NCBI GenBank assembly: GCA_030142905.1
Contig: JASJOG010000675.1
Span: 1-64,000 of the forward strand
Direction of reading: 5' to 3'
Source: Heliopora coerulea
Taxonomy: Eukaryota; Cnidaria; Anthozoa; Scleralcyonacea; Helioporidae
DNA length: 64,000 nucleotides
In this document: positions 55,906 to 62,580 of the stretch, piece by piece
How positions within the stretch are numbered: the stretch's first letter is position 1
Layout of the letters: each line of letters starts with the position of its first letter
The notes under the pieces: generated by a model
Told to the model about the DNA's origin: nothing
Database searches by the model: none
Seen by the model: only the letters and a program-made list of their open reading frames with translations
Position numbers and translations under genes: made by a program

Positions 55906-57163
55906 CAGTACCGTACAAAAGTTTTAGGTCGCTTTCTGAAATATAAATATATGCTACTTCAGTTGTTTCTGTACTCTTCTATCAGGTCCCAAAGCCTATC
56001 TTTCATCTTAGTAGGGCCTTTTTTAAATCTGGACAGCTAGGATTCATTCTACTTTTGACAGAGTTGCTGTTTTTATGAAATTTGTTCCTAAAGCTGTGTG
56101 GTAGTTAGGGAGAAATGCACAGTAATTTCATCCTCGTTGCTAGGTTTTTCTGGGTATGTGCAGTTGTTTTCATTAGAAATCACGCATGCCCAGTGTTCTC
56201 CAAATAGATATTTCACACGTGTACCGCACGTGAACTATTCATTTGTTAAAGTTGAAGTTGTTAGAGTTGAAGTTAAAGGATGCCACAGGAACCCAGGTAA
56301 GCTCCAGTACAATTAGAAGACAGCTACAAGAGTTTGGGTTGAAAGAGCTGTGTTGCAGTAAGGAAGCCTCTGCGCACACAGGCCGACAAACAGAAGAGAT
56401 TGGAGTGGTGCTGGGAGGCGAAGGATTTAACATCTGAACAGTGGGCGAAGACGTTATTTGACGACGAGTCAATTTTTGAGCTGATTTCAGGGAGGAGGAC
56501 ATTTGTTAGAAGAAGAGTAGGAAAACGGTTCCACCCATACTGTAATGTACTCACAGCTAAGAACGGAGGAGGGAAAATCCAGGTGTGGGGATGCATGGCG
56601 GCCAGTGGGGTTGGAAGCTTCAAGGTAGTCAGCGGTCAACTGGACGCAGCAGCATACGTTAGGCTGATCTGTCGCACTCCTGAGAAAGACGGGAAAAAAC
56701 TGTGAGATAGACTTTATCTTCCAACAAAATGGGGCTCCATGTCATAGAGCAAATAGGACCAAGTTCTGGCTTGAGAGGAAAAGGGTATCAGTTAGCCCAT
56801 GGCCATCACAGAGCCCTGACCTAAATCCCACTGAGTATCTTTGGGAAGTAATAAAGAAGGTAGAGACCAGATCATGCAAGAACTTGGAGGAATTAAAGGT
56901 AGCTATCTTTGAGTCATGGGACAGCATTGACGCAAGTGTAACAGAGAACGTTGTTCCATCGATACCTCGGCGTTGTGGAGTTATAATTGCTGCTCGTGGC
57001 GATAGTACCAAGTAGTAGACTTTAATACTTTTCTCTTTGCCATTGCTCCACTTGTGTAAAGCAGTTTTCCAATGTTGTGTAACCTTCATTGTATTGTAAT
57101 ATACTGAGATATAACCAAAAAGTTACAAATTGAGAGGTGACCTAAAACGTCTGCACGATACTG
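55906..57163 (+). mobile_element. Tc1-type (DD34E) transposon, inactive
   Basis: The inverted ends CAGTACCGTACAAAAGTTTT and CAGTATCGTGCAGACGTTTT (complement of the right end), each followed by AGGTC, are flanked by TA as expected for Tc1/mariner. Read across frames, the transposase shows TGTQVSSSTIRRQLQEFGL, LTSEQWAKTLFDDESIF, VWGCMAASGVGSFKVV, FQQNGAPCH and WPSQSPDLNPTEYLW. The N-terminal DNA-binding part is missing, frames shift near 56340-56400 and 56700, and the second catalytic Asp is Asn in QQNGAPCH. Thirty-four residues separate that position from the Glu. The element is a dead copy. Confidence 0.88.
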
Positions 57164-57864
57164 TATATTGTTTCAGTTGTGCTGTATTTTGACGCCTTTG
57201 TTAATTTGTTGATTTCAGGGGTGGTGCCAGAAGGGGAACAGGGGGGGCTACAGCCTCCCCTCGGGTAACTTTAGCCCGTAGAGAAGAACGTACTTTAGAA
57301 CGTACTTTAAGAAGCCACAGCACACCATTCAATGTCAAAATAATTTTCTTGATGACCAAACAAAGTGAGAATGGATGGAGGGCAGTCTCTTGGGTTACAC
57401 TGAACATCTATCTTAACTTATCCAAACCAAGTCAGGCTATTTGACTAAGATGAACGTCAGAAGATTTCTGTAGTCAGGAAAAGACCGCCAGTCTATAAAG
57501 GATTGAATCATCGATCCAACTGTCGTTAGTTTAGATCACCAAAAGTTTTTTTTGCATTTTTCACGAGCACTCGGCTTTCAAATAAATGCTACTTCATACA
57601 AATTAGTTGTACTTTTACATTCGTATATTTCAAATTTATAGTAACCCAACATATCTACATTCTACTTACAAGCAATGTGCAAAAGGGTGTACATACGGTA
57701 CATAATAAATCAGCAAGAGTTCGACGTTTAAATTTCTACAAGTCATCCTCCATCGCAATTTTGTCAGGTATAACTCGCATACTATTCAGTTGTATTAGTT
57801 CATTCTTATGTTGTATAGGTAAGTTACTGACAGTAATGTTCACTTTATTGAACAATATAATTAT

Positions 57865-57925
57865 AAGTAATACCATGAAATGAGGTGTATAATAGCTAAT
57901 GCACCGAAATTTCATGGTACTACTT
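57865..57925. mobile_element. Short MITE with AGTAATACCATGA ends
   Basis: AGTAATACCATGAAAT and ATTTCATGGTACTACTT are inverted. The end motif matches the MITE at 10495-10660. Confidence 0.6.
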
Positions 57926-57951
57926 TGTAATATCATGTTTGCCAAAATTCA

Positions 57952-58035
57952 ACTAATACTACCTCCTGTGACGTCAAACCGGGTGGTATTAGTCCTAATA
58001 CGACCCGGTTTGACGTCACTGGGGGTAGTATTAGT
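57952..58035. mobile_element. 84-bp nearly perfect palindrome
   Basis: ACTAATACTACC and GTGACGTCAAACCGGGT on the left are mirrored by ACCCGGTTTGACGTCAC and GGTAGTATTAGT on the right. Each arm contains a full CRE (TGACGTCA). Confidence 0.8.
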
Positions 58036-58598
58036 ACAAATCAATTTTTGTAAGGTAAATTAGTTATTAATGGAACCTGAAAAAACAAAAGAAATTGAGG
58101 TAAACATGATATTATTGGGGTAATTAATTCGCAAATATTCTAAGACAACTATTTGACTTGTGACAGTTTTCTGGTTCCCGATTATGAACAGATCGATAGT
58201 TAATACAAAGAACGACAAGTTCTTGACCTACTTTGGTTAACAAGATACATTTAAGTACAAAGAAATATCAGTTTGACATCCGAGTACTTTTAGCCCGCCC
58301 CCACTTTGTTAGAAGCGACTTCGCCCTTACTATGTACAGATTTTTATATTTGTAGATATCTTTAGATGTTTAGATATCTATGTGTCCATAGAAATCTATC
58401 GATAGATTAATCGCAACAGCTTTGTTCCGTTTTACAACCAGATACTACAATTAAAGCAGGTGTGTCTTATATTGGTGAGTCATACAGCGCTTTGATCTAT
58501 ACAAGTATTGTAATTGCCATCATGTAAATGCTTTATTGAATCAAGCTAAATAGTAAATTGTTCAATTGTTTGTTGAAGTCCACGGCCACGTCAACAGA

Positions 58599-59807
58599 TT
58601 AGCTTATTATAGCTTTCAGTTTAGCCTTCGTGCCATCAATAATTTTTAAAAGAGGTTCCAGATTTTCTTCAAGGCTTTTTACGACCCTTTTTAATGTTTC
58701 TAAGTCTTTTCCACATGTTTTGCTTCTATCCAAGCTGTTCTTGAACTCTTTATATAATTCATTTACTTCGTCAATCTTCGTGTGGTCGATTTCATGGTTC
58801 AAACCGACCAGTTCATCAGCCAAGAGAACGGACCAAGTAACCAAGTGTCGATCACGGGACACATTTGGTACGTAGATAAAATATTGCTTATTCATAAAGG
58901 CGATTTCAAATCTACGACCTGAAGCCCGTTTAGCAATACCACTGTCAAGAGACAGCAGTATGCCAACTCTAAAATCAGGAGCGCTGTGGACCTCACTCTC
59001 AAATTTTTCAATTGCTTGTGTGTTCACTGGCTTCTGATGCTTTTTTACCTCAATGAGATACTTGTGCATCTTTGGTGAGGTAACATGGATATCTCCTTTC
59101 CTACTCTCCCTAGCAACATTTTCAATTGTATGGGATTTAAGCTCTTTTAAAATCTCCATCACTTGTATTTCACCAACAAGGCCTTTCGTTGGTGCCTTGC
59201 TGTACATTGACTTCATGTCGTTTAATTTCGTTTCGCACCTATCGAGACCAGAAGTAATGGGAGACTGCAGTACTTGTTTAATGGCGTCTTCTGAGGTCTT
59301 TACTTTATCCGATACATTTCTTTCTACAGAATCGATTTTCCTCTCTAAAGCATTCAACGGGGGTACTTTACCGGCCACTTCTTGTACACTGGCGATGAGT
59401 TGGCCTTCCATCTTAATCATGTCAGAACTGATGTTTGTTTTAAGTCCCACAACTTTTTGGTCAATGCTCGCTATACCCGAGGACACTTTGTTCTCAAATG
59501 TAACTGCATTCTGTTTCGTTTTCTGCTCCATTTCTTCAACGTTCTTAGAAACTTTGGAGACGAGAGATTCCACTGCTTCAGACATTGGCTTAAGCTTCTC
59601 GGTGAGAAGACCATCAATGTAGTCTTCTTTAAAGCTTACATTCATGGAGACAGAATTTTTAACCAAAACGCCAATGTTAAATGCTTCTATCAGTTCCTCT
59701 TCACTCGCCGTTTCAACCCACGAAGGGAAGTTGTCCAGATTAAGCACAATTTCTCGTCGTCGAGATAATTTCTGTCTCTTTTCTACTGGTATGTATTCTT
59801 CCTCCAT
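58599..59807 (-). CDS. Intronless coiled-coil protein with PD-(D/E)XK nuclease-like core
   Basis: A 402-residue frame with ATG at 59807 and no intron, unlike the intron-rich genes around it. Residues 60-200 form a long coiled coil. Residues 205-300 carry a restriction-endonuclease-like signature: KGLVGE (Glu213), KGDIHV (Asp239), LIEVKKH (Glu253-x-Lys255) and IEKF (Lys268-Phe269), then VGILLSLDSGIA. Residues 345-402 are again coiled coil. The order recalls bacterial RmuC and nuclease-like proteins of large DNA viruses; I infer only fold-level kinship. The function is unknown: it could be a nuclease or a catalytically idle DNA-binding protein. The frame is intact, suggesting either recent arrival or selection. 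Confidence 0.75.
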   Translation of the reverse strand: MEEEYIPVEKRQKLSRRREIVLNLDNFPSWVETASEEELIEAFNIGVLVKNSVSMNVSFKEDYIDGLLTEKLKPMSEAVESLVSKVSKNVEEMEQKTKQNAVTFENKVSSGIASIDQKVVGLKTNISSDMIKMEGQLIASVQEVAGKVPPLNALERKIDSVERNVSDKVKTSEDAIKQVLQSPITSGLDRCETKLNDMKSMYSKAPTKGLVGEIQVMEILKELKSHTIENVARESRKGDIHVTSPKMHKYLIEVKKHQKPVNTQAIEKFESEVHSAPDFRVGILLSLDSGIAKRASGRRFEIAFMNKQYFIYVPNVSRDRHLVTWSVLLADELVGLNHEIDHTKIDEVNELYKEFKNSLDRSKTCGKDLETLKRVVKSLEENLEPLLKIIDGTKAKLKAIIS

Positions 59808-59809
59808 AT

Positions 59810-60750
59810 TGCTCTACCGAATCAATCGACTTTATTTCAACAGGATAGCCCTGGTGGTAAGTAAGACTTCATTAGTCACATATTACTGCCACTTATAAAG
59901 GTTAATGCTAAACAGATCTAGTCACTTCGATTAAAATGACAAGAGGGACCGATTGTACAAAAAATGGTTAGTTAGCATTAAATAACTAGTTAACTTTTTA
60001 ACTGCGGTAAACTTTAACTATTCTAACTTCAACTAGCTAACTTTAACTATTCTAATTAACATTTCCATAATATACATCTCTTTAGTTAACTACATAGTCA
60101 AAATGCCTCGTATAAAGCGTAGTTAGTCTTGTTGATAACTGACTACCCAGGCAACCGTAAGTATGCGATAGATGGTTAAGTAATGTTTTATATCTGATAA
60201 AGCACGTACTGAGTGTTTTTTTTTTGAACGGCTTAAAAAACGAAACGTTTTATACGATAATTCCTTACGTAAGTTTGGCAATCCCTGTTTTCTAAGGCGA
60301 AAAATATTGAGGAAAATTTGAAGAGAAATTCAGAATAAAGTCACACGTGTTTTTATCACATATAAAGACACGACACAGTTATGATTTTCTCTTGTATTTT
60401 CCTCATGAATTCTTAATGAGCTTTTTAAGAGGTAGTAACAGATATAAGTAATAATCAAACATTTGAAATGTGCGTTCGAAGGGAGTGTCTGCAATTAGAC
60501 TCGATAAAAATCGACGTGAGATAAAGGGAAGAGTAATAAGCGCCAACCACATTATTACATTAAGTGTCTTTAGTCGCAGGGAGTAAGGTTTGATCGAAGC
60601 GTGAAAACACACACGCTCTTGATTTGCCATGAAATGGGAATGTTTTGCTCACCTCTTTCAAAAGAGCTTCAAATTCAAATGATAGATTTAGTGATACGTT
60701 GAGCCTGGTTTTCACTAGCGACCTAACCATAAGCATAACGGCAAATGGCA
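59810..60750. other. Intergenic, low complexity, part of a MITE
   Basis: 60000-60110 repeats TTAACTA/CTAACTTTAACTATTC units. From 60703 a GCCTGGTTTTCACTAGCGAC end marks one side of a MITE; its partner end is not visible, perhaps because the Penelope dimer interrupted it. Confidence 0.5.
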
Positions 60751-60871
60751 GCACAGTTAGCACTTCAATATTGTCGCAAGCGAGGATCCAGGCGGGAATC
60801 TCAATTTCAGAACAAATATTAATGTCCAGCAAAGTACACGCAATAAGGCCATGATTTGTAAAAGAAATAAG

Positions 60872-60929
60872 TTTATTAACAGGACTAACGTTTCGTTGCG
60901 TCTCGCAACATCATCAGAGTATGAATAAA
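60872..60929 (-). ncRNA. Hammerhead-ribozyme-like motif, left arm
   Basis: Mirror of the motif at 62435-62492 and identical in its core: CTGATGA at 60917-60911, stem II GTTGCG/CGCAAC and GAAAC at 60894-60890. It sits 3' of the GIY-YIG frame, where Penelope terminal repeats are known to carry hammerheads. Confidence 0.5.
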
Positions 60930-60979
60930 TTAAACGGGTATTGTATCTACAAGGTCAGAGATATAAAGTAGGTGTTATA

Positions 60980-61735
60980 TTACAAGATGTATGGGAAACG
61001 GAAATGGATAGAGCGGTTAAAAAAGAGAGGAACAGAGCTTGGATTGGCATTCAAGGAAGGTTTAAGTTTAGAAATAATAAGACTTTCTCTTACCAAAAGT
61101 TCAGAGGCAGAAGAACAGGAGGATAGGATTTTGAAGTCGTCGAGTGATGCAGTGTGGCCAGTCTCAGTGAGATGAGTTAAAATGCTGGAAGGTGATGGGT
61201 TAAGAAGCTTTTTACCTGTCAGGGCAGAGACTCCCAGATGATCAGAGGCTCGTGTATGTAAGTGGCGGGCAGTTTGGCCCACATACAATGCGGAGCAGCA
61301 TTGACACGTGTAAGAATAAACGACACGAGACCTCAGAACTTTAGGAGTCCTGTCTTTAGAGTTGAAAATATGAGCAAGTCGCTTGCCTGGTTGAAAAACA
61401 AAACGAATTCTAATGTGAGGGTAAGCTGAAGAGCACAGTTTTAAAATTTGAATGCGGATTTGAAGAGAGTGACAACCAGTGAAGGGAAGAGAAAAGTATA
61501 AGACCTTTTTGGGGACTGTGTGAAGGACTGGTTTGGATGTGAAGGTTTTGTCCAAGAAAAGAGAAACGCATTTGTCAAATAAATGGGTAGGAAAGCCATT
61601 GATTTTAAGGATATTTTTTAACATTTCAAGTTCTTTGTGGAAATTTTCATAACCAGAGCAGATGTTGAAACAGCGATGGAGTAGTGAAAGAATAAGGCCT
61701 TGTTTGTAAGTGAAAGGTATGAAGCTGTGAAAATT
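60980..61735 (-). pseudogene. Penelope-like ORF fragment, left copy (GIY-YIG end)
   Basis: An open frame of about 250 codons, 5'-truncated. It starts in the thumb-like region (FTYKQGLILSLLHRCFN, FPTHLFDKCVSLFL), then YTCQCCSALYVGQTARHL and RASDHLG, and ends with RESLIISKLKPSLN. YVG stands for the YIG motif, with Arg and His downstream and the catalytic-type Glu in RES. Beyond 61735 the frame continues only as antisense of the other copy. It differs from the right copy at about ten residues. Confidence 0.8.
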
Positions 61736-61739
61736 TGAA

Positions 61740-62384
61740 ATGTTAAAAAATATCTTTAAAACCAATGGCTTTCCTACCCATTTATTTGACAAATGCGTTT
61801 CTCTTTTCTTGGACAAAACCTTCACATCCAAACCAGTCCTTCACACAGTCCCCAAAAAGGTCTTATACTTTTCTCTTCCCTTCACTGGTTGTCACTCTCT
61901 TCAAATCCGCATTCAAATTTTAAAACTGTGCTCCTCAGCTTACCCTCACATCAGTATTCATTTTGTTTTTCAACCAGGCAAGCGACTTGCTCATCTTTTT
62001 AACTTCAAGGACAGGACTCCTAAAGCTCTGAGGTCTCGTATTGTTTATTCTTACACGTGTCAATGCTGCTCCGCATTGTATGTGGGCCAAACGGCTCGCC
62101 ACTTACATACACGAGCCTCTGATCATCTAGGAGTCTCTGCCCTGACAGGTAAAAAGCTTCTTAACCCATCACCTTCCAGCATTTTAACTCATCTCACTGA
62201 GACTGGCCACACTGCATCACTCGACGACTTCAAAATCCTATCCTCCTGTTCTTCTGCCTCTGAACTTTTGGTAAGAGAAAATCTTATTATTTCTAAACTT
62301 GAACCTTCCTTGAATGCCAATCCAAGCTCTGTTCCTCTCTTTTTTAACCGCTCTATCCATTTCCGTTTCCCATACATCTTGTAA
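61740..62384 (+). pseudogene. Penelope-like ORF fragment, right copy (GIY-YIG end)
   Basis: 214 codons from an internal Met. It has a Cys cluster at 107-110 (TCQCC), YVG at 114-116, Arg120, His129, Glu180 (VRENLI) and Asn192 (SLN). The GIY-YIG nuclease in these elements nicks the target DNA. All visible active-site positions are present, but without the reverse-transcriptase core the copy cannot move by itself. The frame is still open. Confidence 0.8.
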
Positions 62385-62434
62385 TATAACACCTACTTTA
62401 TATCTCTGACCTTGTAAATACAATACCCGTTTAA

Positions 62435-62492
62435 TTTATTCATACTCTGATGATGTTGCGAGACGCAACGAAACGTTAGTCCTGTTAATAAA
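62435..62492 (+). ncRNA. Hammerhead-ribozyme-like motif, right arm
   Basis: Core CTGATGA (62447-62453), one extra U, stem II GTTGCG-AGA-CGCAAC (62455-62469), then GAAA (62470-62473). A two-base stem III AC/GU puts the cleavage-type position in the GTT/AGTC region. Stem I can form ACT/AGT next to the core and, beyond an internal loop, TTTATT/AATAAA. The extra U after A9 and the very short stem III are departures from the canonical form; short stem III is usual in retroelement hammerheads. Activity is untested. Confidence 0.5.
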
Positions 62493-62580
62493 CTTATTTC
62501 TTTTACAAATTATGGCCTTATTGCGTGTACTTTGCTGGGCATTAATATTTGTTCTGAAAGTTAGCACTTCACATGTCAAC

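What the first reader, a model, noticed from the sequence alone, without database searches (positions are those of the whole stretch)
58599..59807. Intronless coiled-coil gene with a PD-(D/E)XK core among intron-rich animal genes
Seen: one uninterrupted 402-codon frame with Glu213, Asp239 and Glu253-x-Lys255 in the order expected for a restriction-endonuclease-like fold, flanked by long coiled coils. Known: RmuC-type proteins and nuclease-like proteins of large DNA viruses combine these parts; animal housekeeping genes in this window are split into many exons. Inferred: it may have been acquired by transfer or by viral endogenisation, or be a retrocopied cellular gene, and could be a nucleic-acid defence or repair factor. 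I see no neighbouring gene that would make a multi-gene system.
Basis: partly seen in the sequence, partly recalled or inferred. Interest (0 to 1): 0.75.

Follow-up and report, generated by a model that had tools for sequence, protein, structure and literature searches.

The report
Coral gene resembling DNA-cutting enzymes
The blue coral carries an unspliced gene for a rod-like protein with the core and active-site residues of a DNA-cutting enzyme; it belongs to a diverse family seen in corals, and what it cuts, if anything, is unknown.

Summary
Window 58602-59807 (-) is one open frame of 402 codons; Glu213, Asp239, Glu253 and Lys255 are all kept in 170 of 184 scorable rows (window plus 183 homologs, many near-copies). 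Two AlphaFold2 models and structure comparison put residues 208-333 in the PD-(D/E)XK nuclease fold. The genome's size and contig count match Heliopora coerulea, an octocoral. Three queries found one locus there; the second hit is a contig overlap. Of 187 listed homologs 7 carry organism names, all anthozoan. Searches of viral, phage and prokaryote collections found no relative. In a virus-only structure library the core matches giant-virus proteins best; no library of predicted cellular structures was available, so origin stays open. It looks like an old anthozoan family, not a recent insertion or retrocopy. Best reading: a nuclear, coiled-coil-assembled, metal-dependent nuclease, more likely for genome defence than repair. 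Fold and active site are well supported; activity, target and defence are inferred.

The parts
58599..59807 (-). complete coding frame, 402 codons plus stop, no intron
   Evidence: identical DNA in the overlapping contig C540; homologs over up to 95-100% of its length
59754..59780 (-). residues 10-18, basic cluster KRQKLSRRR, resembling a nuclear localisation signal
   Evidence: a basic cluster in the first 45 residues of 42 of 52 non-redundant rows with that region (loose regular expression, no control run); nuclear role inferred
59643..59747 (-). residues 21-55, conserved N-terminal helical module
   Evidence: alignment consensus; mean column conservation 0.58 against 0.48 for residues 56-195; helices 29-33 and 36-53
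59199..59627 (-). residues 61-203, two long helices (61-147, 151-203), probable coiled coil
   Evidence: AF2 model; weak Pfam hits to helical families such as SF-assemblin and apolipoprotein; no coiled-coil predictor was run
58809..59186 (-). residues 208-333, PD-(D/E)XK (restriction-endonuclease-like) core
59169..59171 (-). Glu213, first-helix acidic residue in motif KG..GE
   Evidence: A1: at least 90%; Gln in 12 and Lys in 2 of 184 rows
59091..59093 (-). Asp239, active-site Asp in motif GD
   Evidence: invariant in A2 and A3; Arg in 2 of 184 rows
59043..59051 (-). Glu253-Val254-Lys255, the (D/E)XK motif
   Evidence: E253 and K255 invariant in A1, A2, A3; in the larger alignment K255 is Arg in 1 of 58 non-redundant rows
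58605..58784 (-). residues 342-401, C-terminal long helix with well conserved Cys365
   Evidence: AF2 model; Cys in 52, Ser in 4 non-redundant rows
56343..57012 (+). flanking transposase remnant (Tc1/mariner-like by recall), not part of the gene
   Evidence: stretch 56668-57012 matches PF13358 DDE_3, 34.2 bits, cut-off 28.6; stretch 56343-56702 had no Pfam match
60983..62381 (.). two facing ORFs with weak GIY-YIG matches (Penelope-like by recall), not part of the gene
   Evidence: PF01541 17.6 and 18.6 bits, under the cut-off of 22.6

Best explanation
It is a member of a PD-(D/E)XK protein family seen in anthozoans. Shown: the intact intronless frame, conserved active-site residues, the nuclease fold in the models, long helices on both sides, one locus found in this genome, named homologs in an octocoral and in stony corals. 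Inferred: a basic N-terminus takes the protein to the nucleus; the roughly 140-residue helical region assembles it into an oligomer so that several active sites act together; E213, D239, E253 and K255 bind Mg2+ and hydrolyse a nucleic-acid backbone, as in other enzymes of this fold. Most likely target: foreign or mobile DNA (viral or transposon), that is, a genome-defence nuclease. The defence step is the weakest: it rests on uneven family size, sequence divergence, and the company of the fold in prokaryotic defence.
For: Fold; by title and recall nearly all 50 listed VIA rows are nucleases of this superfamily or its relatives (McrC, Can2/Card1, Cdn1, Hjc, EndoMS, DdmD, restriction enzymes). 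Profiles: Mrr_cat above its cut-off in P0048, RmuC above its cut-off in P0059; DUF2130 half a bit under it in P0010; phrog_244 in 37 of 57 members at E up to 0.1. Active-site conservation. Basic N-terminus. Uneven copy number: one locus here, but 187 distinct proteins listed from other data, and 8 contig lengths over 100 kb are each shared by two or three of them, as expected if paralogs sit together (read off the tables; same contig inferred from equal length).
Against: No activity, expression or localisation data. No defence partner seen. The window protein's five PADLOC hits all start in the helical region; two run into the core (LeoA 79-255, ZorA3 72-237) and none is a nuclease match. The sequence profile finds no nuclease among the 60 PDB entries shown of 120, and the whole-model Foldseek search of the PDB has no match at E 0.001. 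Profile-profile probabilities to E. coli Mrr, DUF2130 and RmuC are low (16, 1.3 and 0.9%). In 14 of 184 rows catalytic residues are replaced. A single locus in Heliopora would suit a housekeeping role as well, many enzymes of this fold act in repair, and the PDB is rich in restriction and defence enzymes, so that argument is biased.
Confidence: 0.42

Rival explanations
1. A DNA-repair or recombination housekeeping nuclease, working like RmuC: a coiled-coil clamp with a PD-(D/E)XK domain that trims or protects DNA ends or limits recombination.
For: Same build as RmuC (coiled coil before the nuclease core); RmuC Pfam match in 20 of 57 members at E up to 0.1 and above cut-off in P0059; one locus here, and no base difference within the frame between the two overlapping contigs.
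Against: RmuC is not among the window protein's own Pfam hits at E 0.1; hhalign to E. coli RmuC alone gives P 0.06-0.07, probability under 1%; some matched stretches are mostly coiled coil; the family is diverse and numerous in stony-coral data, unusual for a core repair factor.
Confidence: 0.25
2. A gene captured by an early anthozoan from a giant DNA virus (or shared with one), kept and multiplied; function possibly domesticated.
For: The best matches of the isolated core in the viral structure library are HaV01 (TM on query 0.77, 2.9 A, 139 columns, 23% identity), CroV (0.70, 22%) and a Megaviridae sample (0.70, 19%), E 1.2e-10 to 7.5e-8, with two unnamed proteins at 2.3e-8 and 1.8e-6; the first named phage row is at 1.7e-3.
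Against: The library holds viral proteins only and no predicted cellular structures were on hand, so the ranking is one-sided. With the whole model the same matches run over 266-389 columns but with rmsd 11-24 A and TM 0.31-0.39, so a shared full-length shape is not shown. No tblastn relative in viral contigs; motif-pattern scans gave no full-core relative in the rows examined. Direction could be host to virus.
Confidence: 0.2
3. A coiled-coil scaffold whose nuclease fold no longer cuts (pseudo-nuclease).
For: 14 of 184 rows have replaced one or two of the four residues; the helical arm is the longest part.
Against: 170 of 184 rows, the window protein among them, keep all four residues; the core is the most conserved region (0.62 against 0.48 for residues 56-195).
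Confidence: 0.08
4. The coding part of a mobile element.
For: Intronless and flanked by transposon remnants.
Against: One locus in 430 Mb by three protein queries; no credible terminal inverted repeats: the only listed pair that brackets the whole frame is 14 nt at 86%.
Confidence: 0.05

Closest known systems
Giant-virus Mrr-like proteins (HaV01 A0A1C9C4X3, CroV E3T5I3, Megaviridae A0A5J6VIU6)
   Same: core fold at 23, 22 and 19% identity over 139-155 columns, in proteins of 385-542 residues
   Different: found by structure only; whole-length superposition poor (rmsd 11-24 A); two are listed as uncharacterised, CroV's as Mrr-domain; sequences not available here, so no tree or residue check
RmuC family (PF02646)
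   Same: coiled coil then PD-(D/E)XK core; the P0059 match of 26.8 bits reaches the cut-off of 26
   Different: window protein shows no RmuC hit at E 0.1; basic N-terminus here, membrane anchor in RmuC (recalled)
Mrr_cat (PF04471), type IV restriction
   Same: core motif order; P0048 24.6 bits over the cut-off of 21
   Different: window protein 16.3 bits, under the cut-off; EcoKMrr reads QAK where this family has EVK
DUF2130 (PF09903), bacterial, unknown function
   Same: long N-terminal part, GD...E-x-K core, C-terminal part; P0010 match spans 39-234 of 255 profile positions
   Different: 26.2 bits against 26.7; hhalign to five bacterial members P 0.04, probability 1.3%; the five bacterial proteins start with a CPHC motif not seen in the coral proteins read
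McrC
   Different: 11% identity; partner GTPase not searched. A paper passage (PMC11090510) says animal McrB-like GTPases are described but no associated McrC homologs reported

Membership tests
PD-(D/E)XK superfamily | ordered acidic residues and (D/E)XK motif on the core strands | tested here: met
   E213 in helix 210-220, D239 just before strand 240-243, E253-x-K255 at the end of strand 249-255; conserved
PD-(D/E)XK superfamily | restriction-endonuclease-like fold | tested here: met
PD-(D/E)XK superfamily | metal-dependent phosphodiester cleavage | not testable with these tools
   needs purified protein
RmuC (PF02646) | reaches Pfam gathering score | tested here: not met
   window protein: not among its 13 hits at E 0.1. 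P0059 does reach it
Mrr_cat (PF04471) | reaches Pfam gathering score | tested here: not met
   window protein 16.3 bits, cut-off 21. P0048 reaches it
DUF2130 (PF09903) | reaches Pfam gathering score | tested here: not met
   window protein: not among its 13 hits at E 0.1; P0010 26.2 against 26.7
DUF2130 (PF09903) | profile-profile similarity to bacterial members | tested here: inconclusive
   P 0.04, probability 1.3%, motifs in register, five narrow sequences only; five column-shuffled controls P 0.20-0.62
McrC | fold of the McrC nuclease domain, with McrB partner | tested here: inconclusive
Nucleocytoplasmic giant-virus homolog | sequence-level kinship to viral proteins | tested here: inconclusive
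   structure match only; no tblastn relative in viral contigs
Retrocopy of a cellular gene | intron-bearing parent in the same genome | tested here: not met
   three protein queries find only this locus; candidates scored 13, 3 and 32; the tool calls counts lower bounds
DNA transposon | terminal inverted repeats and several copies | tested here: not met

The most novel reading that the evidence does not exclude
Anthozoans carry a restriction-like immune nuclease shared with giant DNA viruses: an oligomeric nuclear nuclease that cuts invading viral or transposon DNA, held at one locus in the blue coral and multiplied in stony corals in an arms race with large DNA viruses of the reef.
Probability: 0.17. 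Interest if true: 0.8.

Novelty: new variant of a known kind. Interest (0 to 1): 0.45.

Why it matters
If the defence reading holds, corals would have a restriction-type nuclease arm that could be assayed at once, with candidate genes in many genomes. If the giant-virus kinship holds, it would be a traceable gene exchange between animals and giant viruses. Even on the modest reading, a numerous family of probable nucleases in reef corals has no fitting entry in the Pfam copy used here.

Tried and rejected
Rejected: recent insertion, retrocopy, transposon (see tests). The second genomic copy is not a duplication: contig C540 1-13136 overlaps the right end of C640 at 98.7-99.6%.

Led nowhere: the search for related loci in viral contigs with A1 and A2 and in genome contigs with A1, no relative; tblastn in phages, no match. 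In the first set the best 30 rows shown are phage-size ORFs that match the motif part of the profile, as the pattern itself selects for; two of them (L007, L119) also match model positions 120-139. In the 124 loci of the other two sets the best E was 0.034 with the core profile and 0.012 with the core plus C-terminal helix (ORFs of 80 codons or more; the default filters passed nothing). A pattern scan of genome contigs gave two stretches, neither with a match to the profile. hhalign: E. coli Mrr alone P 0.0016, RmuC 0.06-0.07, DUF2130 0.04; the 97% match to phage ORFs is circular because a motif pattern had picked them. hmmsearch of five DUF2130 proteins and Mrr with the family profile found nothing. 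The PDB sequence search with the window protein gave one hit at E 1, and with A1 the 60 of 120 shown are apolipoproteins and other helical proteins. Apolipoprotein, ZorA, LeoA and tail-protein hits I read mainly as coiled-coil similarity.

Not done: 161 of the 281 proteins were not listed and not seen; dN/dS (no DNA of homologs); RNA-seq; gene structures in other species; McrB-like partner search. Paper searches showed no description of this family in the rows listed; one search held 2,209 papers at two of five terms, of which 10 were listed. Two coral papers were looked at by passages only: PMC13044578 on dark gene families (no word beginning with nuclease in the main text) and PMC12383311, which lists a PDDEXK_1 protein (A0A3M6TW03) lowered in bleached hydrocoral; I could not compare it with this family.

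Full report
What is there. Window 58602-59807 (-) holds one open frame of 402 codons, stop at 58599-58601. The longest stop-to-stop run in 100 mononucleotide shuffles of 32 kb of the window was 202 codons, against 404. The frame is flanked by transposon remnants (a DDE_3 match at 56668-57012 above cut-off, GIY-YIG matches at 60983-62381 below cut-off) and lies in a window with glycogen-synthase and zinc-finger matches, so it sits in an animal chromosome.

Where it is. The genome has 429,824,877 bases in 769 contigs. The Heliopora coerulea paper (PMC10267220, passages seen) reports 429.9 Mb, 769 contigs and 37.4% G+C; the window has 37.6%. I take the host to be the blue coral, an octocoral; this is inferred from matching statistics. 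Three protein queries (the window protein, P0006, P0058; 13, 3 and 32 candidates scored) found this locus and its image on contig C540 only. C540 1-13136 aligns to the right end of C640 at 98.7-99.6%, with 45 differing alignment columns over 10.9 kb and none in the frame: a contig-end overlap, not a duplication.

The family. Three searches reported 66, 97 and 281 proteins, 187 distinct ones listed; 161 of the 281 were not listed and I have not seen them, and one search scored only the 7,998 candidates that share most words, so more distant kin may have been missed. Seven of 187 carry an organism name, all anthozoan: Porites lobata, P. evermanni, Stylophora pistillata, Desmophyllum pertusum, Oculina patagonica (two), Paramuricea clavata. 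P0001 is 98% identical, the next about 50%. For a tree I kept 56 of 188 rows (others were over 80% identical to a kept row or too short in the core). The six named stony-coral rows form one side of a branch against the other named rows (100/97); at the midpoint root the window and the octocoral Paramuricea fall among 20 rows and the stony corals among 36 (each 100/95); 47 rows have no name. This fits a gene of the anthozoan ancestor, but the unnamed rows and the drawn root leave that open. Intronlessness is shown for this gene; for homologs I could not check gene structures.

Relatives outside corals. In the viral structure library the isolated core matches HaV01 A0A1C9C4X3 (E 1.2e-10, TM on query 0.77, 23% identity), CroV E3T5I3 (3.8e-8, 0.70, 22%) and a Megaviridae protein (7.5e-8, 0.70, 19%), with two unnamed proteins at 2.3e-8 and 1.8e-6; the first named phage row is at 1.7e-3. 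With the whole model the same three are on top, over 266-389 columns, but with rmsd 11-24 A and TM on query 0.31-0.39, so only the core match carries weight. No predicted cellular structures could be searched, so bacterial or protist kin as close as these may exist. Sequence searches of viral contigs, phages and genome contigs found no relative; pattern scans found phage-size ORFs that share the motif and nothing closer in the rows examined.

How it may work. Shown: fold in the models, conserved active site, helical arms, a basic N-terminus in 42 of 52 rows with that region (no control). Inferred: nuclear entry, oligomer formation through the helices, metal-dependent cleavage. The target is not known. 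I favour foreign or mobile DNA because family size is very uneven (one locus here, many diverged versions elsewhere) and because the fold's nearest solved relatives include many prokaryotic defence enzymes; both arguments are indirect, the second is biased by what has been solved, and repair enzymes (Hjc, EndoMS) stand in the same list. Repair, as for RmuC, is the main rival. A paper on other gene families (PMC8195603, passages seen) notes expansions of immune proteins in sessile marine animals and raises lateral transfer among them; the passages seen do not mention this family. A census of McrBC systems (PMC11090510, passages seen) says that animal McrB-like GTPases are described without any associated McrC homolog; since McrC is the best solved-structure match of this core, a link would be worth testing, but nothing here shows one.

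Verdict. Not a misreading, and no named family fits it by its cut-off, but the fold is a known kind. New variant of a known kind; interest 0.45.

Noticed in passing
60805-61000 and 62364-62559: 98.5% identical inverted arms around two facing ORFs with weak GIY-YIG matches; C540 matches the window inverted over about 830 bases at 96.5-97.6%. Looks like two Penelope-like ends head to head (label recalled).
   Followed up: partly
57952-58035: near-perfect palindrome, arms of 41 nt, 93% complementary, 2 nt apart, about 560 bases beyond the stop codon; may be a small transposon or a hairpin.
   Followed up: no
57117-60684: no difference between the two overlapping contigs over 3.5 kb around the gene, while all 45 lie in the other 7.4 kb; chance, gene conversion or constraint not tested.
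   Followed up: no
P0027-P0037, P0017, P0040, P0065: 14 rows with Gln or Lys for Glu213, two of them also Arg for Asp239: possible loss of activity in part of the family.
   Followed up: no
L131 (Citrobacter plasmid) and L127 (Lactococcus plasmid): 2 of 5 bacterial DUF2130 genes fetched lie in defence-like company: beside an ATP-dependent endonuclease and a DNA methyltransferase, or beside a TrlF-family ATPase; the other 3 do not.
   Followed up: no
G000 contigs C540 and C640: unmerged overlap of about 13 kb between two contig ends of the assembly.
   Followed up: yes
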